Shown piece after piece: positions 21,433 through 39,071 of a DNA stretch of 49,667 nucleotides; position 1 is the stretch's first letter; each line of letters starts with the position of its first letter. The notes below the pieces were generated by a model. That model was not told the DNA's origin and did not search any database. It saw nothing but the letters and a program-made list of their open reading frames with translations. The DNA is from Bacillota bacterium (lineage in GTDB: Bacteria > Bacillota > Clostridia > Oscillospirales > Oscillospiraceae), in assembly GCA_029225225.1 (NCBI GenBank), contig JAQXWB010000012.1:1-49667 (forward strand), in the 5' to 3' direction. A program made the translations under genes and the position numbers.

Positions 21433-22074
21433 CTACTCGGCGCAAGGCTCCAAGCTAATCGCAATGCCGCTGACCCTTGCTTGGATGGCCAGCGCCGTGC
21501 GGCTCTCGCAGCCGGTTTTTTCCAGCATATGATGAATATGGTTTTTCACGGTACTCTCTGAAATACAAAGCTGTTTTGCGATGGCGGCATTTGAAACACC
21601 GGTAGTCATAATGCGCAGCACCTCCAGTTCGCGTTCGGTAAATTCCGTACTGGTTGCGATGCCGAGCTTAACGGGCTGCACACTGTCGGGGTAGACCGAC
21701 TCGCCCGCTATCGTCCGATCCATCACCTGTAGAATCGACTCTTTCGAGGCTTCCTTATACCAAAAACTGTCGATGCCAATCGCCCGCGCCTTTTTCAGCC
21801 ATGAGGCCTCCGGCATAGAGGTCACGGCAATGATCTTTATCTCCGGGCAGTGCTTTTTGATTCTCGCCGCCGCGTCCAAGCCGTTGGAGCCGTCCGACAT
21901 AAGAATGTCCATAAGGACAAGATCAATGGCGTGCTTCAGAACAAACGTGTCCGCGAACGCAGCGGATTCGACGGAATAAACCATCTCATATGCCTCCGAA
22001 GAATTTACGATCATCTCAAAAAGCTGCCTCGATATAAATTGGTCATCGACAATCATCACTTTTGTCTTTGTCAT
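21433..22074 (-). CDS. NarL/FixJ-type response regulator
   Basis: VMIVDDQFISRQLF...LVLMDILMSDGSNGLDAA...FTERELEVLRIMTTGVSNAAIAKQLCISESTVKNHIHHMLEKTG. Confidence 0.94.
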   Translation of the reverse strand: MTKTKVMIVDDQFISRQLFEMIVNSSEAYEMVYSVESAAFADTFVLKHAIDLVLMDILMSDGSNGLDAAARIKKHCPEIKIIAVTSMPEASWLKKARAIGIDSFWYKEASKESILQVMDRTIAGESVYPDSVQPVKLGIATSTEFTERELEVLRIMTTGVSNAAIAKQLCISESTVKNHIHHMLEKTGCESRTALAIQARVSGIAISLEPCAE

Positions 22075-22075
22075 T

Positions 22076-23365
22076 TTAGCATACTCCTTTGGGCAGCTCT
22101 ATCCGCAGTAAAAAGCGTGGCGTTGCCTCCGTTTTCATTGTTCCTCCTGCCGTCTCCACGGTATTGCGCAGATTCAAAAGTCCGCCGGTTTCGCATATCG
22201 CTCCCGTAGGCGGAATGCCGTTGTTGGTCAGCGTCGCCGTAAGTACGGTTTCGTTTGAGCAGAGCTTCAAGTACAATTTGTTGCCCTTTGCGTGCTTTAC
22301 GGTATTTGTCAGACATTCATGCACCGCCGCAATGATCACCGCTCTCTCGCGATCATTCTCCGGCACCTCTCCGTCTTGTACAATCTGCACATCGACCGAT
22401 TGCGCTGCCTTGGAAAGCAGCTCCCAATCACTGCACCGTCTGACCGGTGAAGCCTCGTTTCTCAGCACCGCTACGGTTTGCCGCCATAGGAGCAATAGCG
22501 CATCGCGGTTTCGCTCCGCCATCGGCTGATCCAAATAGGCGCGAAACGCAAGCAAAGAACGTCCCACATCATCATGCACCCGCATCTTCGCGGTCAACAG
22601 TTCTTTTTCCATCGTGCTGCGCTCTACCTCGCGGCTGTACCGCCGCAGGCGCTCATTCACCCGCTTCAAGGCTGCGTTCCGGGCATCCAATTCCTCCCCA
22701 AGATGGTGCTGTTCCGTCACATCGTAGGCAATCAGCTCCTGCACTGCGGCGCGTCTTACCGTAAGCGTTCTGACGCGAAAGTCCCAAACCTTCCCGTCTT
22801 CCGTACGCACGATCACCGTCGGCTCGGTACGAAGAAACTCCGCCTTTTCCTCTCCGTGCCGCAAGCTTTGCAGAAAAGCGTCCGCATTGAGCAGCGTCGT
22901 ACCGAACAGCTCGGCACTGATGCGATTCATTCGCATATTAACCAGTAGCGGCTGACCGTCCGCATGAAAAAAGCAAATGCCGTCAGGCAGTGCGTCAAGG
23001 CTTTCCTTTACTGACATCGACGTAAGCATCGTTTTCCGCTGTTGTCTCAAATGCTGCAAGAGCGCCGCTTCCGCCGAGGCCATCAGAGTCAGAAGCGCAG
23101 CCAAAACGCCATAAGGCATTGCTCCAGTCATTTTACCGAGATTCACGGGTGTAAAGCCGTTGACTTTGCAATTGGAAACATCGCCGATTCCCTGCAACAG
23201 CAAGACGGCAATCGCAGTTAGAAGCACCGAAAAAGCCAAACGCCAATCTCTTCGCCGCATAGAGCAGACAGAGACGAGAAGATACACCGCGCCCGCCATC
23301 AGCAGAAGTGCAAAAACACCAAAAAAGCCTTGCGTTGCATTCGAAAGCGTGTCATAGCGGCTCAT
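22076..23365 (-). CDS. Sensor histidine kinase
   Basis: TM N-terminus; MRVHDDVGRSLLAFRAYL phosphoacceptor region; VIIAAVHECLTNTVKHAKGNKL N box; GGLLNLRNTVETAGG. Confidence 0.85.
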   Translation of the reverse strand: MSRYDTLSNATQGFFGVFALLLMAGAVYLLVSVCSMRRRDWRLAFSVLLTAIAVLLLQGIGDVSNCKVNGFTPVNLGKMTGAMPYGVLAALLTLMASAEAALLQHLRQQRKTMLTSMSVKESLDALPDGICFFHADGQPLLVNMRMNRISAELFGTTLLNADAFLQSLRHGEEKAEFLRTEPTVIVRTEDGKVWDFRVRTLTVRRAAVQELIAYDVTEQHHLGEELDARNAALKRVNERLRRYSREVERSTMEKELLTAKMRVHDDVGRSLLAFRAYLDQPMAERNRDALLLLWRQTVAVLRNEASPVRRCSDWELLSKAAQSVDVQIVQDGEVPENDRERAVIIAAVHECLTNTVKHAKGNKLYLKLCSNETVLTATLTNNGIPPTGAICETGGLLNLRNTVETAGGTMKTEATPRFLLRIELPKGVC

Positions 23366-25041
23366 TTTGCTGCACCTCCCATGGGCAGAATCAGGCAGAT
23401 GTATTCCGTCTGTTCTTCGGTCTCTATCGTCAATGTGCCGTGCTGCGCATGGATCTCAGCTTGCAGCGTCTTCTCAGGCAAGAAGCTGCTCGGCGCATTC
23501 AGTTCCATTTGCAGCGTCAGTCTGCCGTCATCAATGCGTAAACGCACGAATAGCGCGTCCATATCCGGAAGTGCAGCCTCTAAGGTCTCCTCAAACAGCG
23601 CATAGGCCAGCAAGATCGCTTCGCCGCCGAGCATCGCATCGCCGGAAACCTCTGCGTGTGCCTGTACGCCGTATAGACGCAGATATTCTAAGGATTCGGT
23701 AATCGCAAGATGCAGCTCGTTGCTTTCGATCTGACCTTTCTGATGGAATAGCAGTAATAGATTCGAACACCGTTTGACATAGGTATTCAAGATGCAGGCA
23801 TATTTCATCATCTGCTCAAAGGCTGCCTCCTCCTGCGGCGGTGCAGCAAGGAGGGTGCTGATCCGGTCAAGCTGCGGTTGGACGCTTCTTGCAATGCTGT
23901 CACATAAACGGTTTTGCTGTTCAATGCGGACGCGCTCCTCTGCCAGCGTGTTCTCCGCGTCCAGCATCGCATTCTCCTCCGCTATCACATCGCCCAATTC
24001 CTTCAACGCCCGATGCAAACGGTTGATTTCGGAGATATCCTTCGTCCAAAAGCCAAAGCCGCCGTGAATCGCGTGACTTCGCAGGGCAACGCTGCCGTCT
24101 TGCAGTAAAACCTCCCCTTCCTCCGCCGCACGAATCTGCGCCGGCGTCACGGTGTTTTTCTGTGCTGCACTGTAACGGATCGAGCCGTTTTGGTCCATAA
24201 CCCCCGCGCCGATGGAGGACGCGTTCCACAGATCGTTATAGCTGTCATTTGAGGGAAGCAGCCCCGCTAAAATCAGCCCCTCCATAAACGAACAGTAAAC
24301 AAAGCAGATGATCTCCGGTACCATAAACAGCGCGAGAATTCCATTGTCACCCCAGATAAAATAGCTCGCGAAGCACAACGCGCCAAGCGCCAACGGCATA
24401 AGCGGCATCCATATCTTTTTCCGGTTGCCATACACGGCGCATCGCCGAACCGAAACGGCAATCATCGCCACAAACAGCAAAAGCACCCACGCCATAGATG
24501 CAAAATAAAAAATGCCGTGGCTGTAGTTGTCCTCAGAGGAAACCACGCCGCCGGGAAAGCGAAAAGCGAGATGATGCAGATCGTTTGTGACAATGGCAAG
24601 CACGATGACGGCGGCGGGGATATACAGCAGCCTCCAAAGACGGCTGATCGGCTGATCCGTCGGTCTTCCGATATACAGCACGGAAAAGAACATCGGCAGC
24701 AGAATGAAGGTCTGCGGGAAATAGTAGAAGTACCAGCAGAGCCGCTCCCCAAGGGAATTGTGTGCGGTAAAAATATATTTTATCGTCCGCAGCATCATCC
24801 ATAGGATCACAAATACCGCAACGGCGATCAGATTCCTTCGGATTTCCGGCTGTATGATCCGGCGCTGAAGCTGCGAAATCCAGATAAGTGCCGCAGCAGT
24901 AAAGAGCGTGCAGATCAGCATATTGTAGGTAAAGCCTTCCATATTCTGTAAACAATACCGAACGACACCCGACAGCAGCACAAGTATGACGCAAACGCCG
25001 TTCAGCACTTTTGTTTTTTTACTGTTACGCACAGGCAACAC
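23362..25041 (-). CDS. 7TM sensor protein with degenerate histidine-kinase C-terminus
   Basis: Seven hydrophobic segments of the HK N-terminal 7TM type; C-term AYALFEETLEAALPDMDALFVRLRIDDGRLTLQMEL resembles a HATPase with altered N box. Confidence 0.72.
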   Translation of the reverse strand: MLPVRNSKKTKVLNGVCVILVLLSGVVRYCLQNMEGFTYNMLICTLFTAAALIWISQLQRRIIQPEIRRNLIAVAVFVILWMMLRTIKYIFTAHNSLGERLCWYFYYFPQTFILLPMFFSVLYIGRPTDQPISRLWRLLYIPAAVIVLAIVTNDLHHLAFRFPGGVVSSEDNYSHGIFYFASMAWVLLLFVAMIAVSVRRCAVYGNRKKIWMPLMPLALGALCFASYFIWGDNGILALFMVPEIICFVYCSFMEGLILAGLLPSNDSYNDLWNASSIGAGVMDQNGSIRYSAAQKNTVTPAQIRAAEEGEVLLQDGSVALRSHAIHGGFGFWTKDISEINRLHRALKELGDVIAEENAMLDAENTLAEERVRIEQQNRLCDSIARSVQPQLDRISTLLAAPPQEEAAFEQMMKYACILNTYVKRCSNLLLLFHQKGQIESNELHLAITESLEYLRLYGVQAHAEVSGDAMLGGEAILLAYALFEETLEAALPDMDALFVRLRIDDGRLTLQMELNAPSSFLPEKTLQAEIHAQHGTLTIETEEQTEYICLILPMGGAAK

Positions 25042-25231: not shown

Positions 25232-25260
25232 TTGACAACACGCAGGCTATAGGCTATAAT
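25232..25260 (+). promoter_or_regulatory. Consensus sigma-A promoter
   Basis: TTGACA (25232-25237) - 17 nt - TATAAT (25255-25260) upstream of the lipoprotein at 25312. Confidence 0.85.
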
Positions 25261-25311: not shown

Positions 25312-26184
25312 ATGAAGATACTTTTGAGTGTTCTCATACTTCTCTCAACGCTCCTACTTGTCGGCTGTAAGACGCAGGAGGCATTGCCGAACGAACGGGG
25401 CGGCAGCACGGCTTCCTCCGGTCCTCCATCACTTTCGGAAGCACCGTCGCAGCAAGACGGTACCGCAGCGGAAAGCACGGATCCCGATTCCGAAAGCGAA
25501 CACGGACAGCAGGGAACCGAGACACAGGAGGGCGGATCGAACGGGCAGGTATCCGAATCATCGGGCACTGAAAGCGATCAGCCAACCTATCCCGCGCCGA
25601 CGGGCGAGCCTTGGGTCTCTGATGTGCCGATCGAAAAAACCGAACCGGTAGAGCTTGACGGGCTTCGCTTTACCTCCTTCGGCAGATACTCTGGCACTTA
25701 TTTTGAAGACGGAAGCGATAAGGCAGTAGAAGATGTCGCTGTCGTGCTGGTCGTGAATACCACTGAGCGTTATTTGGAGCTTGCGATCTTTTCGTTTGAA
25801 ATCGACGGGGCGCCGGCGACCTTTACGGTAACAAATTTGCCTCCGCAAAAAGGCGCTTGGGTCTTGGCGCGGGATGCGTTGATCGTCAACAGCGGCGCAA
25901 GCTTTGTCCTGAAGGGCGGCACGACCACCTTCTGCACACCGGAAGATATTCCTACCATCACCGCGCAGCCGCTGGACGGTACCGTTTTAGTCGAAAACCG
26001 CTCTGAAACCGAAGCGTTTTCCGGATACATATATTATAAGACCGTTTATGAAGACGGCAACTATCTCGGCGGGGTCACTTACCGCTCACTGATTGAAGAT
26101 CTCCCTGCGCAGAGCCGCACCGAGATCACTGCCGCGCACTGCGATGAGACTGCCGAGATCGTCCGTATCGTCACGACGGAGTAA
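25312..26184 (+). CDS. Putative lipoprotein with Ser/Glu/Thr-rich linker
   Basis: MKILLSVLILLSTLLLVGCKTQ lipobox. Confidence 0.78.
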   Translation: MKILLSVLILLSTLLLVGCKTQEALPNERGGSTASSGPPSLSEAPSQQDGTAAESTDPDSESEHGQQGTETQEGGSNGQVSESSGTESDQPTYPAPTGEPWVSDVPIEKTEPVELDGLRFTSFGRYSGTYFEDGSDKAVEDVAVVLVVNTTERYLELAIFSFEIDGAPATFTVTNLPPQKGAWVLARDALIVNSGASFVLKGGTTTFCTPEDIPTITAQPLDGTVLVENRSETEAFSGYIYYKTVYEDGNYLGGVTYRSLIEDLPAQSRTEITAAHCDETAEIVRIVTTE

Positions 26185-26297: not shown

Positions 26298-29200
26298 ATG
26301 AAAGGAAAGGGAATGAACATGAAGCACAAATTATTGAGAAACACAGTCTCTCTTCTGTTGGCGGTCAGCATGCTGTTTGGGCTGCTGCCTATTTTCGCGC
26401 CCGAAGCCACCGCGGCATCAACTCCCGCGGTTCTGGCCGACGGTATCTACGAGATTTCCAACGAGCGTTTCTCCAACTATTGCTGGGACTATGTCGACCG
26501 CGACTTTGAGGGCAGCAGCATTACCTCCCTCTACTCAAAGCCGAGATCCGCCTCCTCTCAGGCACAGAAATGGCGTTTCGAGCGCTCCGGCGAGTATTAC
26601 ACCATCCAGAACTGTAATTCCGGTCTCTATTTGGAAGTGGTGGACAAGTCCAACATGAGTGACCTCAACGGTACTGCGCTGGCGCTGCGCTCCGCAACCG
26701 TAAGCTCAGACGCTTTCTACTTCAAAATCGCCTACAACCAAACCTACGGTACATACGAGATCACCTCGAAACGCTATCCCTCCCTTTATCCCCACCTGAG
26801 CGACGGAGGAAACTCTGAAATCACAACGCACATTCATTTATGGGGCGGCAGTGCGGGACAGTCGCGGTATTTCATCAACGCAGTTGTGATCGACGGTGTG
26901 TATGAGATTGCCTCCGCTCTGGATACGGATTATGTTTTAGACATTCAGGATAACTCCGCCAATAGTGAAGGAAATGACGGTCAGCTCTGCCTGAACCGTC
27001 GTGACAGCAGCGACAACGCACAGAAGTGGGTCGTTCAGCGCGTCTATGATTCGGAAAGCGGCCTGCAGCTCTACTACAGCATTCGCAATCTGGACGCCAA
27101 CCGCTATCTGGATGTGGACAGCAACACCCAGACAAAGCTGCATACCTACGGAGATGATCTCAACGCCAACAGGTACTTCTGTCTGGACATGAACAATGAC
27201 GGAACCTTCTCCATCCGTTCCAATCTCTATGCAGGAAAATACGCGGCGGTGGATGGCAGCGTCGGCGCAAACGTCACGGTCTCGTGCAAAACCGATGTGC
27301 GCAATACCGCAGCGGGCCGATTCTATCTGAAGCCTGTGACCTATTCCTACACTCCTTCGGATAAGGATGCTTTCAATAACGGCGGCATTTTCTACGTCAA
27401 AGCCTCCACAAACCCCGACCTTGCCTTCGATGTAAAGGATGTCAACACAAATGCAGGCGCAAAGGTACAGCTATATAACTACCAAGAAGGACAAAACTAC
27501 CAGCAATTCTCGTTCATCCCCACGCAGGATGGCCACTATACCATCCGCGCGTCGCTGAACGACCGCCTGATGACCTCGGAAGCAAATGTTATCGCCGGGA
27601 CATCGATCACTCTGCAAAGCACCGGCGCAGCCACCCTTTTACGGGAAAAATGGAATGTTGTCCCCCATGTCGACGGCACCTTCGCCTTTGTCTCCTGCTA
27701 TAACGGTCTGTATATGGACGCCGCAGGCAGTGTCAGCGCCGGGGCTGAAATCCACCATTGGACTTCGCACTACGGAAACAACCAAAAGTTCAATCTTGTC
27801 AGCGTGAACACCTCTAAGACCCAGGGTGTCCGATATAACGGCGAAACAAACATCTACGCCGACACCTTCGACACGAGCGACACCATCAAGCTTCCGATTG
27901 AGATCTACGACTACAAGGCAGACGGTCTGCTCTTTGAGTATGCTGAATCACAGGAAACATCAAAAATGACGGTTGCCGATTCTTCCGGTTCTACTGAAAC
28001 GGTTGCAACGCTGAATAGATTCGGTGACATTAATACCACTAATGGTTGTATCGTTAGCACGGCTTCGCAAACAGAGGTAGCACTCTATCATGCAGTTGTC
28101 CTTTGTGACGCAAACGGCAAGGTTACAGCAGTTTATCCTGCCCCACACTCCGGACGGGAGCCAACGCCGAGCGGAGGCTTCTTTGTACAGGCACACGGCA
28201 CACAAGCTCCCCTTTTGGCAAAAGCACAGATCGGTGACACCGTTACCTATACCGACAATACAGTAACCATCACGCGTGGAGGTTCCGTTTCTGTCCACAT
28301 GGGCAATAACAAGGGCTTCGGTCTGCTCCGCCATTCCGACGGCGGCGGCGATGTGGTAAACAAATCGGTCACCTATACCGGCAACCTCTATTACGACAGC
28401 AATTACGGTCAGTACAGCAGCAACGCTCCTTTGGTAACAAAGGACATCGGCTCCCCCTATACCAACGCAGGCAAGATAACAGACGGCGCTTTTTCCAATA
28501 TCGTGCAGGCGGACCGCTATCATAGCTCCGCTGATATTGATTATTCCGGCGACATCAGCGCTGCATTAGGTTATACGCTGTATAGCAAAATGACTGAGGG
28601 CATAGCCACCGTCGGTCTTTTAGAGCCGACGCTGGGTGCGGACAAGAACCCTGTCTACACCGAAAACACGGTCACCTATGTGGCGCAGCTTCTCTACTCC
28701 GTCCTGCCCATCCCCGAGAAAAACAGCGACGGCTCGAAAAACTACAACTTCGCCCACGGCGAGGCGAGAAGAACCTACACAAACGATCCCAACGCAAAAG
28801 TTGATCTGCCTCAGGCGCTGCGCTGGGTCCTCGTAAATTACGTCAACAGCAACGATAACCTCAGCCAATACGACAGAAAGAATTATACAATCGGCGACTA
28901 TGACTCCACGCTGAAGAAAGCATCTTTGCTGCGCGGCAGCTGGGTGAATGTCTGGACGCATATCGAGACTTGCTACGACGCTGCCTACTACCTGCTCAAC
29001 AGCCTCTTTGACGCGGAAGGCTACCATGTGGATTCGTCGGATTTCAACTACGATGTAGCTCCTTACGATTCTCTTGTCCTGACAAAGGCCACCACCAAGG
29101 CAGGCAAGGACGGCTATGTTTTTGACGCGGGCTTTGCCACCTCCTCCTCCAATTCCCTTGCAGACCAGGCAGTGGAATATAACAGCGACACCAAGACAAT

Positions 29201-32200
29201 CCGCAACACCTCCGCAGCAGGCAAGGCAATGTACTATTATGTCGATGGCATCGGCACTACCTATTATCCCTTCCTGCCGATCACCACGCAGAACAATGGC
29301 GACGGACAGACCAAGGGCTATGACTTTGATCCGGGCATCGTCAACAACGGCACCGAATACAACAACAGAGACTATAACTATGTTCTCAAATCCAGCGGCC
29401 GTTTCGTCTATGACGCGGACAAGGATCTGTTCTTCGACTTCGAGGGCGACGACGATGTTTACCTCTTTATCAACGGTGAGCTGGTTCTGGACATCGGCGG
29501 CGCACACGGCATCACAAAGGTCGAAATGAGCCTCAACGACTATGTCAATGCGGCTTATCAGAAGATCGCCAACAATACTGCCACCGAGCGTGACCGCAAG
29601 CTGGCACTGGAGGACGGGAAGAGCTACAGCTTCGACTTCTTCTACATGGAGCGCCACGGTTATGGCGCAAATATGCGCATCTTTACGAATTTCGAGGTTT
29701 CCGCTCACGGCGCAGAGACGAATAAGCACGCCTATCAGAGCGGCGAGCTGCAATCCGGCTCTGCCGTCGACACGACGAGCCTCGTTGAGTACGGATTCTC
29801 CATCACCAACACGGCCGTGGAGGATCTGAAGTGCTTCGAGTTTGAGGATTCGCGTCTCGGCGTTCGCATTGACTACACAGACGGTCTGACCCTCCTTCCC
29901 GCCGGCAAAGGTGAGATTGTCAATAAGGACGGCGACCCCCTCACCCCCTCCGATCTGAGTATCAGTATCCTGGACGAAAACGGTGATCCCCTTCCCATCG
30001 ATGAGGGACTGCAAAATAAGCCACTGCAAACCATCCTCGGAGAGAGCGGTATCCGTCTTTCCTTCGGTCAGACCATTTTGATCCGCGGCATCTATCTGAA
30101 GAATATTGAGGGGCGGATGGACAAGAACCATTGCTTTGAAAACAAACTTGACACGACCTGCTTCACGGATACCAGCGAGAAAACCAAGATCACAGGCAGC
30201 GACACCCTCAAGCTCTATGCGCCTTCAAACCCGATGTATTATCAGTGGAAGACACAGGAGCTGAATATCTCCGGCAAAGCATTTGTAGAAGATGTTCTCG
30301 CGGCTGCTGCGGAACCGGACAACCCGCTTTACGGCAAAGCCTCCGGCCTGACTGTGGATAATTTCACTACGCTTACCGTCTGCACCGCCGGCGGCTCTCC
30401 GCTCTCCAGAAGTCCGATCAGTGTGACCGGCAGTGGGCAAACTGCGATCGTCAACATCAATTATAACGAGATCGGCACCTACACCGGATTTATCAAGATT
30501 GCTTATGAAAACTCGCAGATCGTCGTTCCTCTGCAAACCTATGTGCTGGATGCACCCTCCAATACGGTCGTCCTTGACTATGGCCTGAAGGCAGCACTCG
30601 GCAAGGCATACGCGGAAAACAACTATTTCAATGTTCCCGGCAGAGCCACGACCTTCCGCTACGAAGGCTATCAAGCTGGCGGCAAGCCCGGCTTTGATGT
30701 GAATACTGACAAAAACAGCATTATCTTCAACGCAGGCACCTCCGCGACGGTGCAGGCGCAATACGGTGAGCTTACGACCACCGACAACGGTGCGAGCTTC
30801 ACCTATACACCGAACAAATTTATGAATGGTGCGGATGAATTCTACACTGCCGTCCGCGTCACAGAGGGCGAAGCAAACAACAAGAAAATCGGTACGCTGG
30901 ATATTCACAACGAAGTTGAGATGTGGTTCAAAACTACCGTTCTTCCCGCAAGTGTCGTCTACTACGAAGATGACTTCCCCGCGATCAATTACCATAATCA
31001 GGTCATCTCCACGACCAACGCGGACAACACGACCACCCAACGCAACACCATCACGACAGACGGCAGCGGTAGTAAGGATCTCTATCAAAGCGTTGACAAC
31101 AGCGAGCAATACGGTCATGACGCAACCTATGAAAACGGCGACATCATCATGAGCGGCAACTCGGCGCATGTGATTGAGATTGTGGACACTTCCGTGATTG
31201 TGGACTTCAACTTCCGTGGCACGGGCTTTGAGTTGATCGGCAGAACCAACGCAACGGATGACACGATCCTCCTGATCGAAGTCAAGCAGCCCCAGCGCGA
31301 CGAAAACGGCACGATATTGAGGGACGATAAAGGAAACATCAAGTACAATGTCGTGCGCCGTATGCCTGTCATTCTCGAATACGACAACAACGCAGACGGC
31401 GAAAATGACACAAATAACGACGCTATTTATCAGGTGCCCATTGTCCGTGTAGACGGTCTTGATGTTGACGAGTACCTTGTGGAGATCAAGGGCGTGCCCG
31501 GCTGGCAGGGAAAGAAGACGCTCTTCTACTTTGACGGTCTGCGCATCTACCGCCCGATCTTCGGTCTGACGGACGCCTCCGGCAGCTCGTTGGAGAACGC
31601 TTACCTTCCTGCCGAGAAGAACGGAACGGTCAAAGAGCTGCGCTCTCTGATCATGAAGTCCAACGCAGGCGTCGCGACAGTGGATCAAGACGGCGTCACC
31701 ATCAGCACCGGCTTGAGCACCTACACCGAAAACCGCAATGGCCACCTTTATCCCAATGGAGAAGCGGCTTCTAAGTTTGAAGGGCATACGGTCGAGAGCG
31801 CCTATGATTATCTGATGGTCGGACCGAACAACGAGGTCTATCTTGACGGTATCTCCGCAAAGCAGGGCGTCGTCCTCTATTTCACCTTGAATGACGGTGT
31901 CACCATCGACAACGCAGAGCTGCAGATCGGTCTGCACAAGCTCGACGCGAAATCGCTGTACGGTTTTGAAGAAGATGACAGCAGCTGCGCCCTTTGGCAG
32001 AGCGCCTATCAGAATGATAGCTATGGCTGGCTGGCGGTCAACAACAGCATCACCAGCGCGACCGAGCAGTATTACCGGATCAACCTCAGCGCCTGCAAGG
32101 AAGTCTCCGAGGGCCGTTATGAGTTGATTCTGTTCGCTGCTGACGGTATGCTCTCTCTGACGAGTGTGAAGTATTACGGCATTACACTCAAACCGACCGA

Positions 32201-33263
32201 CGGTACGGCATGTACCTTCGCCTATGACGAGCACGGTACGTTGGTAGAGCTTGACACCTCTTCCGGAACAACCACAGAGGTATCCGCAGAGAAAGCTTCC
32301 GCTTATCCCAACTTTGCCTCTGTCAGCAAGCAAATGGCTGCCGAAACCGTCTTCCTCCCTGAAGCTGATTCCGTCACCATTCTTGTCCCCGCCGAATCGG
32401 AGAAGCCGAGTGAGCCAACCGATCCGAGCGAACCCGCTGATCCGAGTGAGCCTGTTGATCCGAGTGAGCCCACTGATCCGAGTGAGCCCGCTGATCCGAG
32501 CGAACCCATTGATCCGAGTGAACCCATTGATCCGAGTGAACCCGTTGATCCGAGTGAGCCCGCTGATCCGAGTGAACCCACGGATCCGAGTAAACCCACT
32601 GATCCGAGTGAACCCGTTGATCCGAGTAAACCCACTGGTCCGAGTAAACCCGCTGATCCGAGTGAACCCGTTGATCCGAGCAAACCGGAAGAACCTGTCA
32701 TAGCCCCCGAGTTTACCGACGTTAAGGGCACATGGTATGAGGAGATCGTGGTCTCCTTGGCGGCAAAGGGCGTCATTCAAGGCTACGATGACGGAACGTT
32801 CCGCGGCGATTCGACGATTACCAGAGCAGAATTCGTCACGCTGATCGTGCGTGCCTTTGCGCTGGAAGCCGAGCAGGACTATTCCAATCCCTTCACCGAT
32901 GTCAGCGGCTGGGCAAAGGAATATATCGATGCGGCAGCCTCCTGCGGCATTGTCAACGGCATGACGGCTACGACCTTCGCGCCGGACGAACCAATCACAC
33001 GCGAACAGATGATGACCATCATTTACCGTGTGCAGCGCTATTGCAAGCTGACGCTCCCGAAGCTCGACCAAGTGCCGACCTTTAAGGACCAAGCCGATGT
33101 CTCCGATTGGGCGAGAGCCTCGGTGAATGCGCTGGTCTCGACCGGTCTGATCTGCGGCGACGAAACAAACAGCCTGCGCCCGCAGGGGAAGACAACAAGA
33201 GCCGAATGCGCCACCGTGCTCTACCGTCTGCTGGCAAGCATTGAAAAACAAGAGGAGGCCTGA
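26298..33263 (+). CDS. Giant secreted SLH surface protein: ricin-B-like lectin domains, fibro-slime domain, DPSEPx linker, three SLH domains
   Basis: Signal peptide; repeated QKW-type lectin motifs (SSQAQKWRFERSGEYYTIQNCNSGLYLEV; SDNAQKWVVQRV); FDFEGDDDVYLFINGELVLDIGGAHG (fibro-slime); C-term FTDVKGTWYEEIVVSLAAKGVIQGYDDGTFRGDSTITRAEFVTLIVRAF (SLH). Confidence 0.9.
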   Translation: MKGKGMNMKHKLLRNTVSLLLAVSMLFGLLPIFAPEATAASTPAVLADGIYEISNERFSNYCWDYVDRDFEGSSITSLYSKPRSASSQAQKWRFERSGEYYTIQNCNSGLYLEVVDKSNMSDLNGTALALRSATVSSDAFYFKIAYNQTYGTYEITSKRYPSLYPHLSDGGNSEITTHIHLWGGSAGQSRYFINAVVIDGVYEIASALDTDYVLDIQDNSANSEGNDGQLCLNRRDSSDNAQKWVVQRVYDSESGLQLYYSIRNLDANRYLDVDSNTQTKLHTYGDDLNANRYFCLDMNNDGTFSIRSNLYAGKYAAVDGSVGANVTVSCKTDVRNTAAGRFYLKPVTYSYTPSDKDAFNNGGIFYVKASTNPDLAFDVKDVNTNAGAKVQLYNYQEGQNYQQFSFIPTQDGHYTIRASLNDRLMTSEANVIAGTSITLQSTGAATLLREKWNVVPHVDGTFAFVSCYNGLYMDAAGSVSAGAEIHHWTSHYGNNQKFNLVSVNTSKTQGVRYNGETNIYADTFDTSDTIKLPIEIYDYKADGLLFEYAESQETSKMTVADSSGSTETVATLNRFGDINTTNGCIVSTASQTEVALYHAVVLCDANGKVTAVYPAPHSGREPTPSGGFFVQAHGTQAPLLAKAQIGDTVTYTDNTVTITRGGSVSVHMGNNKGFGLLRHSDGGGDVVNKSVTYTGNLYYDSNYGQYSSNAPLVTKDIGSPYTNAGKITDGAFSNIVQADRYHSSADIDYSGDISAALGYTLYSKMTEGIATVGLLEPTLGADKNPVYTENTVTYVAQLLYSVLPIPEKNSDGSKNYNFAHGEARRTYTNDPNAKVDLPQALRWVLVNYVNSNDNLSQYDRKNYTIGDYDSTLKKASLLRGSWVNVWTHIETCYDAAYYLLNSLFDAEGYHVDSSDFNYDVAPYDSLVLTKATTKAGKDGYVFDAGFATSSSNSLADQAVEYNSDTKTIRNTSAAGKAMYYYVDGIGTTYYPFLPITTQNNGDGQTKGYDFDPGIVNNGTEYNNRDYNYVLKSSGRFVYDADKDLFFDFEGDDDVYLFINGELVLDIGGAHGITKVEMSLNDYVNAAYQKIANNTATERDRKLALEDGKSYSFDFFYMERHGYGANMRIFTNFEVSAHGAETNKHAYQSGELQSGSAVDTTSLVEYGFSITNTAVEDLKCFEFEDSRLGVRIDYTDGLTLLPAGKGEIVNKDGDPLTPSDLSISILDENGDPLPIDEGLQNKPLQTILGESGIRLSFGQTILIRGIYLKNIEGRMDKNHCFENKLDTTCFTDTSEKTKITGSDTLKLYAPSNPMYYQWKTQELNISGKAFVEDVLAAAAEPDNPLYGKASGLTVDNFTTLTVCTAGGSPLSRSPISVTGSGQTAIVNINYNEIGTYTGFIKIAYENSQIVVPLQTYVLDAPSNTVVLDYGLKAALGKAYAENNYFNVPGRATTFRYEGYQAGGKPGFDVNTDKNSIIFNAGTSATVQAQYGELTTTDNGASFTYTPNKFMNGADEFYTAVRVTEGEANNKKIGTLDIHNEVEMWFKTTVLPASVVYYEDDFPAINYHNQVISTTNADNTTTQRNTITTDGSGSKDLYQSVDNSEQYGHDATYENGDIIMSGNSAHVIEIVDTSVIVDFNFRGTGFELIGRTNATDDTILLIEVKQPQRDENGTILRDDKGNIKYNVVRRMPVILEYDNNADGENDTNNDAIYQVPIVRVDGLDVDEYLVEIKGVPGWQGKKTLFYFDGLRIYRPIFGLTDASGSSLENAYLPAEKNGTVKELRSLIMKSNAGVATVDQDGVTISTGLSTYTENRNGHLYPNGEAASKFEGHTVESAYDYLMVGPNNEVYLDGISAKQGVVLYFTLNDGVTIDNAELQIGLHKLDAKSLYGFEEDDSSCALWQSAYQNDSYGWLAVNNSITSATEQYYRINLSACKEVSEGRYELILFAADGMLSLTSVKYYGITLKPTDGTACTFAYDEHGTLVELDTSSGTTTEVSAEKASAYPNFASVSKQMAAETVFLPEADSVTILVPAESEKPSEPTDPSEPADPSEPVDPSEPTDPSEPADPSEPIDPSEPIDPSEPVDPSEPADPSEPTDPSKPTDPSEPVDPSKPTGPSKPADPSEPVDPSKPEEPVIAPEFTDVKGTWYEEIVVSLAAKGVIQGYDDGTFRGDSTITRAEFVTLIVRAFALEAEQDYSNPFTDVSGWAKEYIDAAASCGIVNGMTATTFAPDEPITREQMMTIIYRVQRYCKLTLPKLDQVPTFKDQADVSDWARASVNALVSTGLICGDETNSLRPQGKTTRAECATVLYRLLASIEKQEEA
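32404..32692 (+). repeat. In-frame 18-bp tandem repeat encoding (D)PS(E/K)PX linker, about 16 units
   Basis: gatccgagtgagcccgct-type units repeated in tandem. Confidence 0.95.
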
Positions 33264-33265
33264 TC

Positions 33266-33526
33266 ATGAAAAGAGTATATCAAAAGCCGCATCTTGAAAT
33301 CGAGAGCTTTGTTCTGACGCAGCAGATCACCTCTTGCAGCTTTTTGAAGGTCGGTTTCAGTAACGAAGCCTGCGTCAATAAGGATGCGGATTCCACAGAG
33401 TATATGAAGCGCTTAGCATTAGCGGGTATTTTCTCCGATGGCTGCGCAACCCCGCCGATATTTGCCCCTGAAGGCAATGACGGCATTTGCTATCACACAA
33501 GCATCAACATGGCTTTCACCTCTTAA
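33266..33526 (+). CDS. 86-aa Cys-containing small protein; candidate modified-peptide precursor
   Basis: MKRVYQKPHLEIESFVLTQQITSCSFLKVGFSNEACVNKDADSTEYMKRLALAGIFSDGCATPPIFAPEGNDGICYHTSINMAFTS; GAGGAGG RBS overlapping the end of the SLH gene; 2 nt between stop and start. Confidence 0.75.
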   Translation: MKRVYQKPHLEIESFVLTQQITSCSFLKVGFSNEACVNKDADSTEYMKRLALAGIFSDGCATPPIFAPEGNDGICYHTSINMAFTS

Positions 33527-33538
33527 CTTATTTCCCCT

Positions 33539-33846
33539 TGAGGCTGTCAAAAGAGCCTCGCAATGACTTGGAAAGGCGCCCACACTTGTCATTGCGAGAA
33601 GCGTAGCGACGTGGTAGCGCAGCCGTTCGCGAGGAACGAGCGTTACGGAGGCGGCATACCCCTTGCGGGTGCAATCCCCAATTTGTCATTGCGAGTCCAG
33701 TGCGCACACTGGTCGTGGCAATCTCCGGTTTTAGGTTTGTACGCAGTCCGTACTTCCTGCACGAGATTGCCACGGCGCAAGCGCCTCGCAATGACAAAAG
33801 AGGGCAGCCTGTTCTGTCATTGCGAGGAGCGCAGCGACGTGGCAAG
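33539..33846. repeat. Compound array of TGTCATTGCGAG palindromic elements, copy 3
   Basis: At least four half-units: cctcgcaatgac; tgtcattgcgagaagcgtagcgacgtgg; tgtcattgcgag...cgtggcaatct; gagattgccacggcgcaagcgcctcgcaatgaca; tgtcattgcgaggagcgcagcgacgtggcaa. Confidence 0.85.
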
Positions 33847-33972
33847 CTGCTGACCAAACGATTGTTTAAGACCTCCGAGGAGAAAAAGAAATCCCTTTGA
33901 GCACCATTTCCCGAAGAATCCCTTCATAATAGAAATAAAGAATAATAATAATGAAAGAAAAGGAAGCGTGAT

Positions 33973-36801
33973 ATGAAAAAAAGCTTAAAGCGAATCGGCG
34001 CTCTGGCGGTTTTGTTGGTGATGCTCTTCAGTCTCGTACCGCTGCATGCCGACGCGGCGATCACGGAGAACGCAAGTCTTAAAAAGCTCACCGATAGCTA
34101 CACGAGCGGAGACGGGAGCTTTACCTTGAAAGTCGGCGCGCGCCTGTTTGTGCTCGCTGATGCGGAACCGTCCGAGGCGCTTCAACAGACGGCGTCGCTG
34201 ATCAGCGCGGAATTCGGCGCGGCAGGGCTTCCCTCCTCCGCAGCGCTGCCACAGGTTTGGGGCGCAGCAGAAGATGTTTTAAAGGGCGATATTATTTTGG
34301 AATTGGTTGAAGGTCTTGCCGCTGACGGCTATCGCTTGACCATCACCGCAGACAACCTCAAAATCTCCGCGAGTGATACGGACGGTCTTCTTTACGGCGC
34401 ATTTATGGCGATCAAGCATTTCCGAGTGTATGCGGAATACGGCATGCAGATCCCTGCCTGCACCGTGCAGGACGAGCCGGACACGAAGAAGGAACGCACC
34501 GTTATGCTCGACTGCGCGAGAAAATACTGGTCCGTGGAGTGGATCAAAAACCTGATCCGGCAAATGGCTTGGATGGGTTATAATACGCTGGAGCTGCACA
34601 TGACCGAGGATCAGGGCATCCACGCAAACATTTGGCGTGATGCGAACGGCAATGTCGTAACGGACTGCAACGGCAATGATTTCGGTTGGCTGCCCGGCTA
34701 CAAAGAAGCCAAATGGGCAAGTGATTCGGGCAACGGACAGAACATTACTTCCGGCGTTCAGGATCCCAACGGCACCAATAATTATAACAGAGATGAACTG
34801 ATTGAGATCCTCAACTGCGCAAAAGAGTATCACATCGAGGTCATTCCCGGCGTCGATGTTCCGGGGCATTGCGATTATCTCATTTATCAATGGGCTAATT
34901 CAGGCGCTTCCGGCAGCTTTACCTTTAACTATAAGGGTACGAATTACTCCAACCGCCCCTCCGCAATCTACATTTCAGATTCCTGGCTCTATCCGAATGA
35001 CACCTATAAGAGCTACGGTACTCTGGATGTAACAAATGATTATACCAAAAAAATGTCTCTCGCACTGATCGAAGCTTACGCAGCCTTTTTCCAAGAATAC
35101 GGCAACAGCACAAAAATGAACATCGGCTGCGACGAGATTCGCGGCTCGCTCAGCTACGATTCTTTTGTCAGCTATGTCAACGAGGTTTGCGCCATGCTCA
35201 AGTCCCACAACTACAGAGTCCGCGCCTTCAATGACTATCTCTATGATAGTTCAAATGTTCCATTAGACAGGGATCTTGAGATTTGCTATTGGCAAACCTC
35301 CGATAATGCTTCCGTTGCGAATTATATCGCCGACAACAGAACGGTCTATAACTGCATCAACGTCTTTACCTATTATGTCCTTCGCTATAATAAGACCCAG
35401 GGCGATGCGCGCAGTGAAACATGCCTGCAATGGGCGTTCCATCACAGCACCGAGGAGCGTATCTTCAGCGGCTGCGGCGGTAATTGCAAAAAAAACAATT
35501 ACAATCCCTGCTATTCGTCCACCGGCTGGAACCCGAGCAAGCTTTGCTCCGTTCAGGACGCGTCGCAATACACTTATAGCGGCGAACAGCTCGGCGGCGG
35601 CTACTTCCTCATCTGGGGCGACTGGGCAGGCTGGAGTACGGAAGTACAGGTCTGGAATGGCATCGACAGCAACGGCACCTACAATCTCATTGACCGTATG
35701 TGGTCCAATTCCATCAAAATGTGGAATTGGGATGTTGACAGCGCCAGCAGCAGTAACGGCTTGTCCTATTCCGATTACTGGCCGCTGCGGAATCGCTACC
35801 GCCTCTATCCCGGCTTTACGGCACCCTCTGCCGCACCTTCTATTCCGACAGCAAGCGCCATACATCAGGTCGCTAATTTCACCGAATTGGAAGACCAGAT
35901 CGCCGTAGAACCGGCTTATGAAAGCAGCAAGTATACGGCAAGCAGTTATTCCGCTTACTTAGAAGCACTGAACAAGGCGAATGCCGTTCTAAGTAATACC
36001 GCTTCGACGCAAGCCGAGGTTGACGCGGCAGTCATCGCTTTGCAAAGCGCTTATAACGGGCTCGAACGCGCTACTGCTCACATCCTTTATAAGACGATTG
36101 TCAACGGAGAGCCGAGGGTCATTGAAGACATTCGTTTTGATGGCGGCAAGATCACGCTGGAGGTCACCGGACGCAGAGGCTACCGCTTCCTGCGCGTAGA
36201 GGGCGACGCCAGCTTGCAGCCGTACTATTCCGGCGCGGAGGGCGGCATCGTCACAGGCACCGTGACCGAGCAAGAGCCAATCGTCATCTGGTATGAGAAC
36301 AACCCGCAGCTTGCAACCTTGGAAGCACTTCTCTCTGCCGACGACACGGCGATCGATACCGAGGCTAACCCCGTTTATCAGGAAGCGAAGCGCGATGCGC
36401 AGGCTCTCTATAACAGCATAAAGTCTTCCCCCAAAACATTGGCAACACAGGACGAGATCGACGCCGTAGCGGATAAACTCATTGCGGCAAAAACCAATGC
36501 GGTCATACCTGCCGATGTGACGAAGATCATCACCCTCAAGAGCACGACGGATGTTGTCGCGCAGGGGAAATCCGCAGTGCTCCTTGTGACCACCTCTCCC
36601 GATGTCAAGAGCCTTTCCATTGAAGGTGTGACCTTCAACGATTACGAGAGCAAGCCCACCGTGACCGACAGCGGCGAGCAAGTGAAGATTTGGTATCTGT
36701 CCTTCATCATGACTACTGCGCGCGAAGAGGCATATACCTATACCGTAACCGCTGTCGGCGCGCAAACCGTGACCGCTGAGATCAGCATTTACTGCAACTA
36801 A
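33973..36801 (+). CDS. Secreted glycoside hydrolase family 20 (beta-N-acetylhexosaminidase-like) with FIVAR-type helical modules
   Basis: Signal peptide; VMLDCARKYWSVEWIKNLIRQMAWMGYNTLELHMTEDQGIHANIW...IPGVDVPGHCDYL; YSAYLEALNKANAVLSNTASTQAEVDAAVIALQSAYNGL. Confidence 0.88.
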   Translation: MKKSLKRIGALAVLLVMLFSLVPLHADAAITENASLKKLTDSYTSGDGSFTLKVGARLFVLADAEPSEALQQTASLISAEFGAAGLPSSAALPQVWGAAEDVLKGDIILELVEGLAADGYRLTITADNLKISASDTDGLLYGAFMAIKHFRVYAEYGMQIPACTVQDEPDTKKERTVMLDCARKYWSVEWIKNLIRQMAWMGYNTLELHMTEDQGIHANIWRDANGNVVTDCNGNDFGWLPGYKEAKWASDSGNGQNITSGVQDPNGTNNYNRDELIEILNCAKEYHIEVIPGVDVPGHCDYLIYQWANSGASGSFTFNYKGTNYSNRPSAIYISDSWLYPNDTYKSYGTLDVTNDYTKKMSLALIEAYAAFFQEYGNSTKMNIGCDEIRGSLSYDSFVSYVNEVCAMLKSHNYRVRAFNDYLYDSSNVPLDRDLEICYWQTSDNASVANYIADNRTVYNCINVFTYYVLRYNKTQGDARSETCLQWAFHHSTEERIFSGCGGNCKKNNYNPCYSSTGWNPSKLCSVQDASQYTYSGEQLGGGYFLIWGDWAGWSTEVQVWNGIDSNGTYNLIDRMWSNSIKMWNWDVDSASSSNGLSYSDYWPLRNRYRLYPGFTAPSAAPSIPTASAIHQVANFTELEDQIAVEPAYESSKYTASSYSAYLEALNKANAVLSNTASTQAEVDAAVIALQSAYNGLERATAHILYKTIVNGEPRVIEDIRFDGGKITLEVTGRRGYRFLRVEGDASLQPYYSGAEGGIVTGTVTEQEPIVIWYENNPQLATLEALLSADDTAIDTEANPVYQEAKRDAQALYNSIKSSPKTLATQDEIDAVADKLIAAKTNAVIPADVTKIITLKSTTDVVAQGKSAVLLVTTSPDVKSLSIEGVTFNDYESKPTVTDSGEQVKIWYLSFIMTTAREEAYTYTVTAVGAQTVTAEISIYCN

Positions 36802-36818
36802 AAGAATCGAGGTGCGCA

Positions 36819-37094
36819 ATGCACATCATCAACGGCTTTTTGATCCGCGAGGTTGCGGATGAGCGCGTCGCCGTTCCCATCGGCGACGCGGTTCGAAAAT
36901 TCTCCGGCTTGATATCGCTGAACGACTCCGCCGCCTTGCTCCTACAGCTTCTGCATACGGAGCAGACGCCCGAAAGCTTGCTCTCCGCAATGCTTGAGGA
37001 ATTTGAGATAGATGAAGCAACAGCAAAGCAGGATATTGCGGAGTTTCTTTCGACCATGGACTCGTTGGGTCTCTTGATTGGTGGGACGCCATGA
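36819..37094 (+). CDS. PqqD-like peptide chaperone (RiPP recognition element)
   Basis: MHIINGFLIREVADERVAVPIGDAVRKFSGLISLNDSAALLLQLLHTEQTPESLLSAMLEEFEIDEATAKQDIAEFLSTMDSLGLL; canonical PqqD pattern. Confidence 0.9.
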   Translation: MHIINGFLIREVADERVAVPIGDAVRKFSGLISLNDSAALLLQLLHTEQTPESLLSAMLEEFEIDEATAKQDIAEFLSTMDSLGLLIGGTP

Positions 37095-37954
37095 ATACAA
37101 GCTTTTGCGCCACAATCGCAGGCATCGGCTTTCGTTTTGTCTCCGAATTCCCAATGGAAACGCCTGCGGAGCTTCTCCCCTTTCCGCTGCAAAGCGGTGC
37201 AGCGGAGGAAGTATTCACGCTCTCTGCAATCACGGAGCCGCTAATCTTTGATACGCCGCCGCTCTTTGTGTCAACACGATTAAATATCTATCGAACAGCG
37301 GAAGGTATCGCAAGAGAATTCCACGCAATTCACTCCACAGACGGCTGCAAAGCCGTCTGTGTTCTTCGGGAAGACAGGCAGAATCGTCTGCTGCTTCCGC
37401 AGGGCATTCTCGACCGTTTTCAGAAAAACTGCACTCTTTCCGTTCTGCTGGGCGCGGAGGCGATCTTTTTGCGGCATGACGCGCTGCTGCTGCACAGCTC
37501 CGTGGTCATCTATCAGGGAAAAGCCGTCCTGTTTTGTGGCGCGCCCGGAATCGGAAAATCAACGCAGGCAGCGCTTTGGGCAAAGACCTTAGGCGCGGAG
37601 ATCATCAACGGTGACCGCTGCGTCATTGCACGCAGAGCGGATGCTTTCTATGGCTGCGGCTCCCCTTACTGCGGTTCCTCCGGCATTTTGAGCAACAAGG
37701 AAGCGCCTATCGGTGCAATCCTTTTGCTGGGTCAGTCTTTGGAAAATCGTCTGCGCAGACTTTCGATGTCAGAAGCGTTTCGTAGAATTCTTCGAGAGCT
37801 GACCGTCAATGCATGGGATTCGGCGTTCATGGAGCGCTGCCTTTCCCTTCTGACCAATCTTGTGCAAGCGGTTCCGGTATACGAGCTGCAATGCCGTCCG
37901 GACGAAACGGCGGTTATGCTGGCAAAGGAGGAAATCACAAAGCATGAATTATGA
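37091..37954 (+). CDS. HPr kinase-like (PEP-carboxykinase-fold P-loop) protein
   Basis: LLLHSSVVIYQGKAVLFCGAPGIGKSTQAALWAKTLGAEIINGDRCVI Walker A; ATGA overlap with PqqD gene. Confidence 0.82.
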   Translation: MNTSFCATIAGIGFRFVSEFPMETPAELLPFPLQSGAAEEVFTLSAITEPLIFDTPPLFVSTRLNIYRTAEGIAREFHAIHSTDGCKAVCVLREDRQNRLLLPQGILDRFQKNCTLSVLLGAEAIFLRHDALLLHSSVVIYQGKAVLFCGAPGIGKSTQAALWAKTLGAEIINGDRCVIARRADAFYGCGSPYCGSSGILSNKEAPIGAILLLGQSLENRLRRLSMSEAFRRILRELTVNAWDSAFMERCLSLLTNLVQAVPVYELQCRPDETAVMLAKEEITKHEL

Positions 37955-39029
37955 TGTACCGATCAAGCAGCGCCTGCAGGCAAAGGCGGCGCTTGCGGGA
38001 ATTCCGATCTTAGGCACCTTTGAGTTGACGCCGCGCTGCAATTTTCAGTGTAAAATGTGCTACGTCCGATTGACCCCTGAAGAAATGCAGCCTTTGGGCA
38101 GAGAGCGGACTGCGGAAGAATGGCTCAGCCTCGGACGAACCGCCTTTGACGCGGGAATGACCTTTCTCCTTTTGACCGGCGGAGAGCCGCTTCTCCGTCC
38201 CGATTTTCCGCAGATCTATGAAGGGCTTGCAAAACTCGGCTTGTCCGTCTCTCTCAACACAAACGGCACGCTGATTTCGGAAGAGATACGAGCGCTGTTT
38301 CTACGCTATCCGCCCGCGCAAGTCAATATCACGCTTTACGGCACCACGCGCGAGACTTATGCAGCGCTCTGCGGCAACGCCGATGGCTTTGACCGTGTTA
38401 CCGACGCGCTGCACTGGCTGAAAGCGCAGAGTATTCTTGTGAATCTGAACGCCACGCTGACGCCGTGGAATGTAAACGAGTGGGCAGCCATGGAGGCGTT
38501 TGCCGCCGCGGAGCAGCTCAATTACCGTCCGACGATTTATACCTTCCCCCCTGCCCGCCGCAGCAGCGCCGATAATTACGCACGCCTGAGCGCAGAGAAG
38601 ATCGGTAGAATGCTTGCCGCAAAGGAGGTTGCGGGCAAGTCTCCGGAGCACATCAAGCAGTTTTTGCAAGAGTCGGAATACGTCGCTGCCCCGCAGAAAC
38701 CTGCTGCCGAAGGCGAACCGCTGCACTGTTTTGCGGGAAAATCGCAGTTTTGGGTTGCATGGAACGGAAAAATGACCCCCTGCGGAATGCTGAACTGTCC
38801 GCAAAGCGACCCGTTTGAAACGAGCTTCCGCGAGGCGTGGGAGGAGATTAAGGCAGAAACTGCAAAAATTCGCCTCTGCCCCGATTGCGTCTCCTGCGCG
38901 CACCGTAAGTTCTGCGCCACCTGCGCGGCAGTAAATCACGCCGAGACCGGAAGCTTTTCCGGCAAACCCGAATACATGTGCCGCATGACCCAAACCTTTG
39001 TTGAGTTCCTCCGCGCAGCAATAGAATAA
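37944..39029 (+). CDS. Radical SAM / SPASM domain protein
   Basis: FELTPRCNFQCKMCYVRL (CX3CX2C), LTGGEPLLRPDF; C-term SPASM-type cysteines CGMLNCPQ...CPDCVSCAHRKFCATCAAVNH; AAAGGAGG RBS; overlaps HprK-like gene. Confidence 0.93.
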   Translation: MNYDVPIKQRLQAKAALAGIPILGTFELTPRCNFQCKMCYVRLTPEEMQPLGRERTAEEWLSLGRTAFDAGMTFLLLTGGEPLLRPDFPQIYEGLAKLGLSVSLNTNGTLISEEIRALFLRYPPAQVNITLYGTTRETYAALCGNADGFDRVTDALHWLKAQSILVNLNATLTPWNVNEWAAMEAFAAAEQLNYRPTIYTFPPARRSSADNYARLSAEKIGRMLAAKEVAGKSPEHIKQFLQESEYVAAPQKPAAEGEPLHCFAGKSQFWVAWNGKMTPCGMLNCPQSDPFETSFREAWEEIKAETAKIRLCPDCVSCAHRKFCATCAAVNHAETGSFSGKPEYMCRMTQTFVEFLRAAIE

Positions 39030-39034
39030 AAATT

Positions 39035-39071
39035 GCGCTCCCTTTATGAGCCTGTCTCATAAAGGGAGCGC
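39035..39071. terminator. Bidirectional terminator-like hairpin, copy A
   Basis: GCGCTCCCTTTATGAG cctgt CTCATAAAGGGAGCGC, 16-bp perfect stem, 6 nt after the radical SAM stop. Confidence 0.75.

What the first reader, a model, noticed from the sequence alone, without database searches (positions are those of the whole stretch)
26298..39029. Candidate undescribed surface/peptide-modification system: SLH giant + 86-aa peptide + GH20 + PqqD/HprK-like/radical SAM
Six same-strand genes: a 2321-aa SLH protein, an 86-aa peptide starting 2 nt after its stop, a secreted GH20 enzyme, and a compact triad of PqqD-like, HPr-kinase-like and radical SAM/SPASM genes. The triad reads as one unit (ATGA overlap at 37091 and an 11-nt overlap at 37944). 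PqqD-like domains are RiPP recognition elements and SPASM radical SAM enzymes often modify peptides (e.g. PqqE, sactionine and ranthipeptide enzymes). HPr-kinase-like proteins phosphorylate some lasso peptides (paeninodin). That combination with an S-layer adhesin and hexosaminidase is not one I recognise as characterised. The substrate may be the small peptide or a surface protein; this is inference. No dedicated transporter or peptidase is visible in the window.
Basis: partly seen in the sequence, partly recalled or inferred. Interest (0 to 1): 0.88.

Follow-up and report, generated by a model that had tools for sequence, protein, structure and literature searches.

The report
Giant-linked phosphopeptide radical-SAM RiPP system
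A gut Clostridia genome carries an apparently unnamed peptide-modification operon, shared by at least a dozen related genera, in which a small cysteine-rich peptide is made alongside a giant cell-surface protein and is predicted to be recognised through a lasso-peptide-type leader, altered by a radical enzyme and phosphorylated on its last amino acid.

Summary
The six genes exist as described. A seventh, a lipoprotein at 25312-26184, belongs with them. Close relatives run PqqD-peptide-HprK-rSAM, in one case with peptide stop and kinase start overlapping (TAATG).

The peptide leader is the YxxP motif of lasso and LPP precursors. The PqqD protein keeps three RRE residues that contact YxxP in solved LppB. 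The kinase-like protein has the PEPCK/HPrK fold. 51 of 55 peptides end in serine, the residue that paeninodin-type kinases phosphorylate.

Best reading: a RiPP-type system related to, but distinct from, LPP (linear polyphosphorylated peptides; Popov et al. 2026) and paeninodin. It adds a radical SAM/SPASM enzyme and a giant surface-protein partner, and lacks lasso enzymes and, usually, LPP's peptidase, NTP-transferase and exporter. Product chemistry, export and biological role are not shown. Verdict: new variant of a known kind.

The parts
25232..25260 (+). Promoter-like site TTGACA-17-TATAAT, candidate operon promoter
   Evidence: 12 of 12 consensus match; function not tested
25312..26184 (+). 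Lipoprotein with low-complexity linker and a C-terminal domain of unknown function; member of a family adjacent to HprK in related loci
   Evidence: ORF; homologues; lipobox LLVGC read from the sequence
26298..33263 (+). 2321-aa secreted surface giant: ricin-B lectin repeats, PA14/fibro-slime, 3 SLH domains
   Evidence: Pfam, NCBIfam; homologous giants next to the peptide in L143 and L149
33266..33526 (+). 86-aa precursor-like peptide: YxxP leader MKRVYQKPHLEIESF, Cys-containing C-terminal part, C-terminal Ser
33973..36801 (+). Secreted GH20 (beta-hexosaminidase family) protein with FIVAR domain
   Evidence: Pfam; orthologue 52% identical after giant-peptide in L149
36819..37094 (+). PqqD-family RiPP recognition element of lasso/LPP type; N35, D72, F76 match LppB N33, D70, F74
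   Evidence: Pfam; PDB profile hits; residue counts
37091..37954 (+). HprK/PEPCK-fold kinase-like protein (H135, GKST Walker A, D175)
   Evidence: model, Foldseek, residue counts
37944..39029 (+). Radical SAM/SPASM enzyme, CX3CX2C plus SPASM cysteines
   Evidence: Pfam/NCBIfam; 11 Cys columns invariant in 33 of 33
39035..39071 (.). Inverted repeat (16 pairs) after rSAM, scored as terminator-like on the - strand; possible operon end
   Evidence: consensus match only

Best explanation
A RiPP-type peptide maturation system coupled to a giant cell-surface protein. (1) The PqqD protein (RRE) binds the YxxP leader of the 86-aa precursor [inferred from conserved contact residues and published RRE-leader structures]. 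(2) The HprK-like protein, probably recruited through the RRE, phosphorylates the C-terminal Ser [inferred from the near-invariant Ser, the fold and the paeninodin precedent]. (3) The radical SAM/SPASM enzyme modifies the Cys-containing core, perhaps with C-S or C-C links [chemistry unknown]. (4) The product acts at the cell envelope together with the co-translated giant protein and the membrane-anchored lipoprotein [inferred from neighbourhood only]. Leader removal and export are probably done by shared enzymes elsewhere in the genome [unknown]. Shown here: gene order and its conservation, co-occurrence, orthology of the peptide, RRE type by sequence, predicted kinase fold, and conservation of the terminal Ser and of the cysteines.
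For: Compact PqqD-peptide-HprK-rSAM operons in L064 and L065 hold orthologues of the window peptide; in L064 peptide and kinase overlap as TAATG. 55 distinct peptides: 41 within 12 kb of an enzyme gene, 38 abutting a large ORF on the same strand. RRE profile: best PDB hits are LppB 9x8z (2.4e-8), TbiB1, TfuB1, PbaB1, with PqqD itself far behind; D72 26/26, F76 26/26, N35 25/26 match LppB residues that contact YxxP (PMC13381572). HprK model pLDDT 88, Foldseek hits PEPCK and HPrK/P. Terminal Ser in 36 of 40 peptides below 60% identity, against 8.6% background. Divergence of peptide and HprK correlated, Mantel r 0.81 (core alone 0.69); with rSAM 0.65 (core 0.44).
Against: No product, mass shift or binding measured. 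One Asp of the HPrK/P 'ADD' pair is Gly in this family ('NGD[RK]'), and lasso kinases are reported to need a His-Lys-Asp-Asp motif, so activity is unproven. No dedicated peptidase or exporter in most loci. 14 of 55 peptides lack enzyme genes within the stretch read (some at contig ends; L143 is about 10 kb from its triad in G004). In L155 the peptide ends in Ala although HprK is adjacent. Species relatedness inflates the Mantel correlations.
Confidence: 0.68

Rival explanations
1. The system is simply a member of the LPP family (linear polyphosphorylated peptides), with the radical SAM enzyme as an optional accessory.
For: Shared YxxP leader, RRE and HprK-like kinase; RRE profile's best PDB hit is LppB; a few loci (L104, L109, L107, L070, L111) also carry NTP_transf_5, an S24-like peptidase or an ABC transporter near the triad.
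Against: LPP's SpI peptidase, NTP-transferase and MsbA exporter are absent from the window cluster and most loci. The published LPP leader consensus YxxPxVLxHQxIxFETxxS does not fit. LPP is phosphorylated at internal Ser3, whereas here the C-terminal Ser is conserved. The paper does not mention radical SAM.
Confidence: 0.15
2. The enzymes act on the giant surface protein (or another protein), and the small peptide is an adaptor or regulator.
For: Giant and peptide are adjacent or translationally coupled in many loci.
Against: In L064, L065 and L111 the peptide sits between the enzyme genes without a directly abutting co-directional giant. Giants differ in domains between loci (GH20, GH25, GDSL lipase, SdrD_B, RicinB, PA14), while peptide leader, cysteines and terminal Ser are conserved. 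The YxxP motif is on the peptide.
Confidence: 0.1
3. The mature peptide is a bacteriocin or signalling peptide, the lipoprotein is its immunity or receptor protein, and the giant is incidental.
For: Cys-containing radical-SAM peptides of gut Clostridia include the sactipeptide ruminococcin C (PMC8188230 abstract); a membrane-anchored protein of one family is near 21 of 44 peptides.
Against: No dedicated exporter in most loci; several copies per genome with diverging cores; giant-peptide cassettes occur without the lipoprotein.
Confidence: 0.2
4. The HprK-like protein is not a kinase but an ATPase or scaffold; only the radical SAM step modifies the peptide.
For: HPrK/P 'ADD' becomes 'NGD', losing one Asp that may belong to the motif needed by lasso kinases.
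Against: His, Walker A Lys and the second Asp are invariant in 29 of 29; the terminal Ser of the peptide is near-invariant; the Butyrivibrio LPP-like kinase homologue also has 'DGD'.
Confidence: 0.25

Closest known systems
LPP, linear polyphosphorylated peptides (lppAKBSDN, Paenibacillus alginolyticus; PMC13381572)
   Same: YxxPx[VL] leader, discrete RRE with Asn, Asp and Phe leader contacts, HprK-like kinase, no macrolactam cyclase, Bacillota, surface or capsule setting
   Different: Here a radical SAM/SPASM enzyme, a Cys-containing core with conserved C-terminal Ser and an adjacent giant secreted protein; SpI peptidase, NTP-transferase and exporter usually absent; leader consensus after YxxP differs
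Paeninodin-type phosphorylated lasso peptides (PMC9266682)
   Same: [Y/W]xxP leader, RRE, HPrK-type kinase, near-invariant C-terminal Ser as predicted phosphate site
   Different: No lasso cyclase or B2 protease in the window or convincingly in the genome; Tyr, not Trp, in the leader, with Asp rather than PbaB1's Gln in the RRE; radical SAM present; peptides of about 74-93 aa, Cys-containing
Radical SAM/SPASM RiPPs (sactipeptides, ranthipeptides, PqqA/PqqD/PqqE, GeoRSP)
   Same: SPASM radical SAM plus PqqD-type RRE plus short precursor with cysteines
   Different: No NCBIfam equivalog reached its cut-off; lasso-type leader; HprK-like kinase; giant surface protein partner

Membership tests
LPP (linear polyphosphorylated peptides) | YxxP leader recognised by a discrete RRE | tested here: met
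   Y5 and P8 in 38 of 40 nonredundant peptides; RRE contact residues conserved; binding itself not tested
LPP (linear polyphosphorylated peptides) | Leader consensus YxxPxVLxHQxIxFETxxS | tested here: not met
   Consensus here is MKKxYxKPxLxxExFxLxxxIAxC
LPP (linear polyphosphorylated peptides) | SpI-like peptidase, NTP-transferase and MsbA exporter in the cluster | tested here: not met
   Absent from the window cluster; present only in some relatives; NTP_transf_5 in own genome only at C56 in a locus that looks like polysaccharide synthesis; no S24-like relative found (uncontrolled)
LPP (linear polyphosphorylated peptides) | HprK-like kinase polyphosphorylating core Ser3 | not testable with these tools
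   Kinase fold predicted; conserved Ser here is C-terminal
Lasso peptides (paeninodin type) | Macrolactam synthetase (Asn synthetase-like) | tested here: not met
   Only weak partial PF00733 matches in own genome, none in the window
Lasso peptides (paeninodin type) | B2 transglutaminase-like leader protease | tested here: not met
   One partial PF13471 match, 26 bits, inside a 738-aa ORF on another contig
Lasso peptides (paeninodin type) | C-terminal Ser phosphorylated by HPrK-type kinase | tested here: inconclusive
   Ser conserved in 36 of 40 and fold met, but one Asp is replaced; activity untested
Radical SAM/SPASM RiPP | CX3CX2C radical SAM motif and SPASM cysteines | tested here: met
   11 Cys columns invariant, 33 of 33; PF04055 5e-23; PF13186 below cut-off
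Radical SAM/SPASM RiPP | Precursor peptide encoded with the enzyme | tested here: met
Radical SAM/SPASM RiPP | Radical-installed crosslink or epimer on the peptide | not testable with these tools
   needs expression and MS

The most novel reading that the evidence does not exclude
A RiPP class whose product is not a diffusible compound but a stoichiometric partner of a giant surface protein: a radical-modified, C-terminally phosphorylated peptide made by translational coupling with an S-layer-type protein or glycosidase and displayed with it, so that RiPP chemistry serves cell-surface architecture.
Probability: 0.25. Interest if true: 0.9.

Novelty: new variant of a known kind. Interest (0 to 1): 0.72.

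Why it matters
It joins two separately studied kinds of RiPP (radical SAM peptides and lasso/LPP-type phosphopeptides) in one operon, and ties them to giant surface proteins in gut Clostridia, with up to seven peptide copies found per genome. The roles of LPP and paeninodin are stated to be unknown (PMC13381572); linkage to named surface proteins and glycosidases gives a concrete place to look. The conserved C-terminal Ser and the LppB-like RRE residues make direct experimental predictions.

Tried and rejected
Lipoprotein reading of the peptide (I-T-S-C resembles a lipobox): rejected, because there is no hydrophobic region before it and many homologues have an inserted residue before the Cys. 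HprK-like as the cell's carbon-control HPr kinase: rejected, a bona fide HprK/P is at G000:C52. Lasso peptide: rejected on cyclase and B2. Dedicated C39 exporter: none in own genome. AlphaFold of the lipoprotein from two sequences was uninformative (pLDDT 44). Sequence-only PDB search with HprK-like found nothing; the fold search was needed. Plasmid tblastn gave one LPP-like Butyrivibrio locus, useful as contrast. Several paper searches with PqqD/HprK/radical SAM/S-layer combinations returned nothing.

Full report
OBSERVATION. The finding's coordinates, strands, overlaps and domain calls are correct. The 86-aa ORF starts 2 nt after the giant's stop with a GAGGAGG ribosome site. GH20, PqqD, HprK-like and rSAM follow one another with a gap of 17 nt or with overlaps. 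A lipoprotein at 25312-26184, preceded by a perfect sigma-70-like site, was missed; relatives of it sit beside HprK in many loci. The window lies in a 2.09-Mb draft genome of 117 contigs.

CO-OCCURRENCE. A search of the genus with the rSAM protein found relatives in 16 of 17 genomes. Reading their surroundings showed short peptides of the MKKxYxKPxLxxExF type beside the rSAM, HprK and PqqD genes. A profile of these peptides found 3 in the window's own genome, hits in 14 of 17 genus members, in 17 of 201 family members (12 of 92 genera), and in few beyond the family. Over all stretches read, 55 distinct complete peptides were collected: 41 lie within 12 kb of at least one of the three enzyme genes (rSAM 34, HprK 38, PqqD 30) and 38 abut a same-strand ORF of at least 450 aa, usually upstream, most often by 2-20 nt. 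These loci were fetched through the rSAM or the peptide, so the percentages describe the family and are not a random sample. G004 repeats the window's plan: lipoprotein-like gene, giant, peptide, further secreted proteins, then PqqD-HprK-rSAM (L143 with L034). G004 contig 47 repeats giant-peptide-GH20 with a 52% GH20 orthologue. In L103, L104 and L109 a GH20 domain is inside the giant just upstream of the peptide.

ORTHOLOGY OF THE PEPTIDE. The rSAM relatives closest to the window's in the named genome collection (54% and 52%; L064 goat caecum MAG, L065) lie in PqqD-peptide-HprK-rSAM operons. Their peptides align with the window's over the whole length; in L064 the peptide stop and kinase start overlap (TAATG). 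So the window's peptide, though separated from the triad by GH20 and a repeat-bearing gap, is the cognate one by orthology.

RECOGNITION. The leader YxKPxL is the [Y/W]xxPx[L/V] motif of lasso and LPP precursors (PMC13381572). The PqqD profile matches LppB (9x8z, 2.4e-8), TbiB1, TfuB1 and PbaB1 in the PDB well ahead of PqqD proper. In LppB, D70 hydrogen-bonds the leader Tyr, N33 fixes the Pro kink and F74 packs on the Pro. The window's D72, N35 and F76 align to these and are conserved in 26/26, 25/26 and 26/26; the residue correspondence was read from the printed alignment, assuming an 18-residue tag offset in the 9x8z chain. PbaB1, whose leader has Trp, has Gln at the Asp position (PMC13381572; alignment). 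Tyr in the leader and Asp in the RRE therefore agree. Binding itself is inferred.

KINASE. Sequence searches gave only weak HprK_rel_A and adenylate-kinase matches. The AlphaFold model (pLDDT 88, pTM 0.85) retrieved PEPCK and HPr kinase/phosphatase from the PDB. H135, GK[ST]T and D175 are invariant in 29/29; the first Asp of the HPrK/P ADD is Gly in most. Paeninodin kinases phosphorylate the C-terminal Ser, described as extremely conserved in precursors of kinase-bearing clusters, and need a His-Lys-Asp-Asp motif (PMC9266682). Here 51 of 55 peptides, and 36 of 40 at below 60% identity, end in Ser, against 8.6% of long ORFs (the binomial value 2e-34 ignores shared ancestry). Three of the four exceptions have Ser one residue before the end (SF, SL, SY). 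The contrasting Butyrivibrio LPP-like peptide ends in Trp. C-terminal phosphorylation is thus a strong prediction, with the missing Asp as the main doubt.

RADICAL SAM. CX3CX2C and the SPASM cysteines are invariant in 33/33. No NCBIfam equivalog passes its cut-off. Peptides mostly carry 4-5 cysteines (range 3-7), so a thioether is plausible but not shown. Divergence of peptides tracks HprK (r 0.81, core alone 0.69) more than rSAM (0.65, 0.44) or PqqD (0.43, 0.14); relatedness of species inflates all of these.

PROCESSING AND ROLE. No lasso cyclase, convincing B2 protease or C39 peptidase was found in the genome. A few relatives have LPP-like accessory genes or an ABC transporter. Several giant-peptide cassettes have no enzymes nearby, in genomes that carry triads elsewhere, which suggests enzymes acting in trans. 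The giants differ in domains; those scanned carry glycan-binding, glycan-cleaving, lipase-like or S-layer-type domains. An envelope role is therefore the best guess, and only that.

NOVELTY. Paper searches found no description of PqqD + HprK + radical SAM; only open-access papers were searched. LPP is the nearest described system, and two of its defining features were tested and not met, so this is filed as a new variant of a known kind.

Noticed in passing
L143:5045-5188(-), L149:1184-1318(-), L060:7317-7448(+), L063:127-267(-) and 2145-2300(-): A second family of short peptides (43-51 aa, roughly MKxFxxPxxxxxxFxxxDxLTxS, acidic tail) sits next to giant secreted proteins and, in L060 and L063, next to a more distant radical SAM gene; possibly a parallel system.
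   Followed up: partly
L146:1932-3569: Giant ORF runs in frame into the peptide (fusion at GNTNV|VKKEYTKP); its relative in L147 has a separate giant stop and peptide. Could be a real fusion or a MAG assembly join.
   Followed up: partly
window 16648, 21341, 33588, 33816, 39100, 48715: Dispersed repeat GTCATTGCGAGGAGCGNAGCGACGTGGCAA, six copies in the window against none expected; two lie between peptide and GH20.
   Followed up: partly
window 21433-25041 (-): 7TM histidine-kinase-like protein and LuxR-type response regulator transcribed divergently from the operon; possible regulators.
   Followed up: no
L119 (Butyrivibrio fibrisolvens plasmid pNP243): Plasmid-borne LPP-like cluster: HprK-like, 57-aa MKKAYVKPEL peptide, PqqD, S24/S26 peptidase, NTP-transferase, glycosyltransferases.
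   Followed up: partly
L075:8675-11017 (own genome contig 106): Second giant-peptide-lipoprotein-HprK-PqqD locus whose radical SAM gene is reduced to a 43-aa fragment; its peptide may depend on another rSAM in trans.
   Followed up: partly
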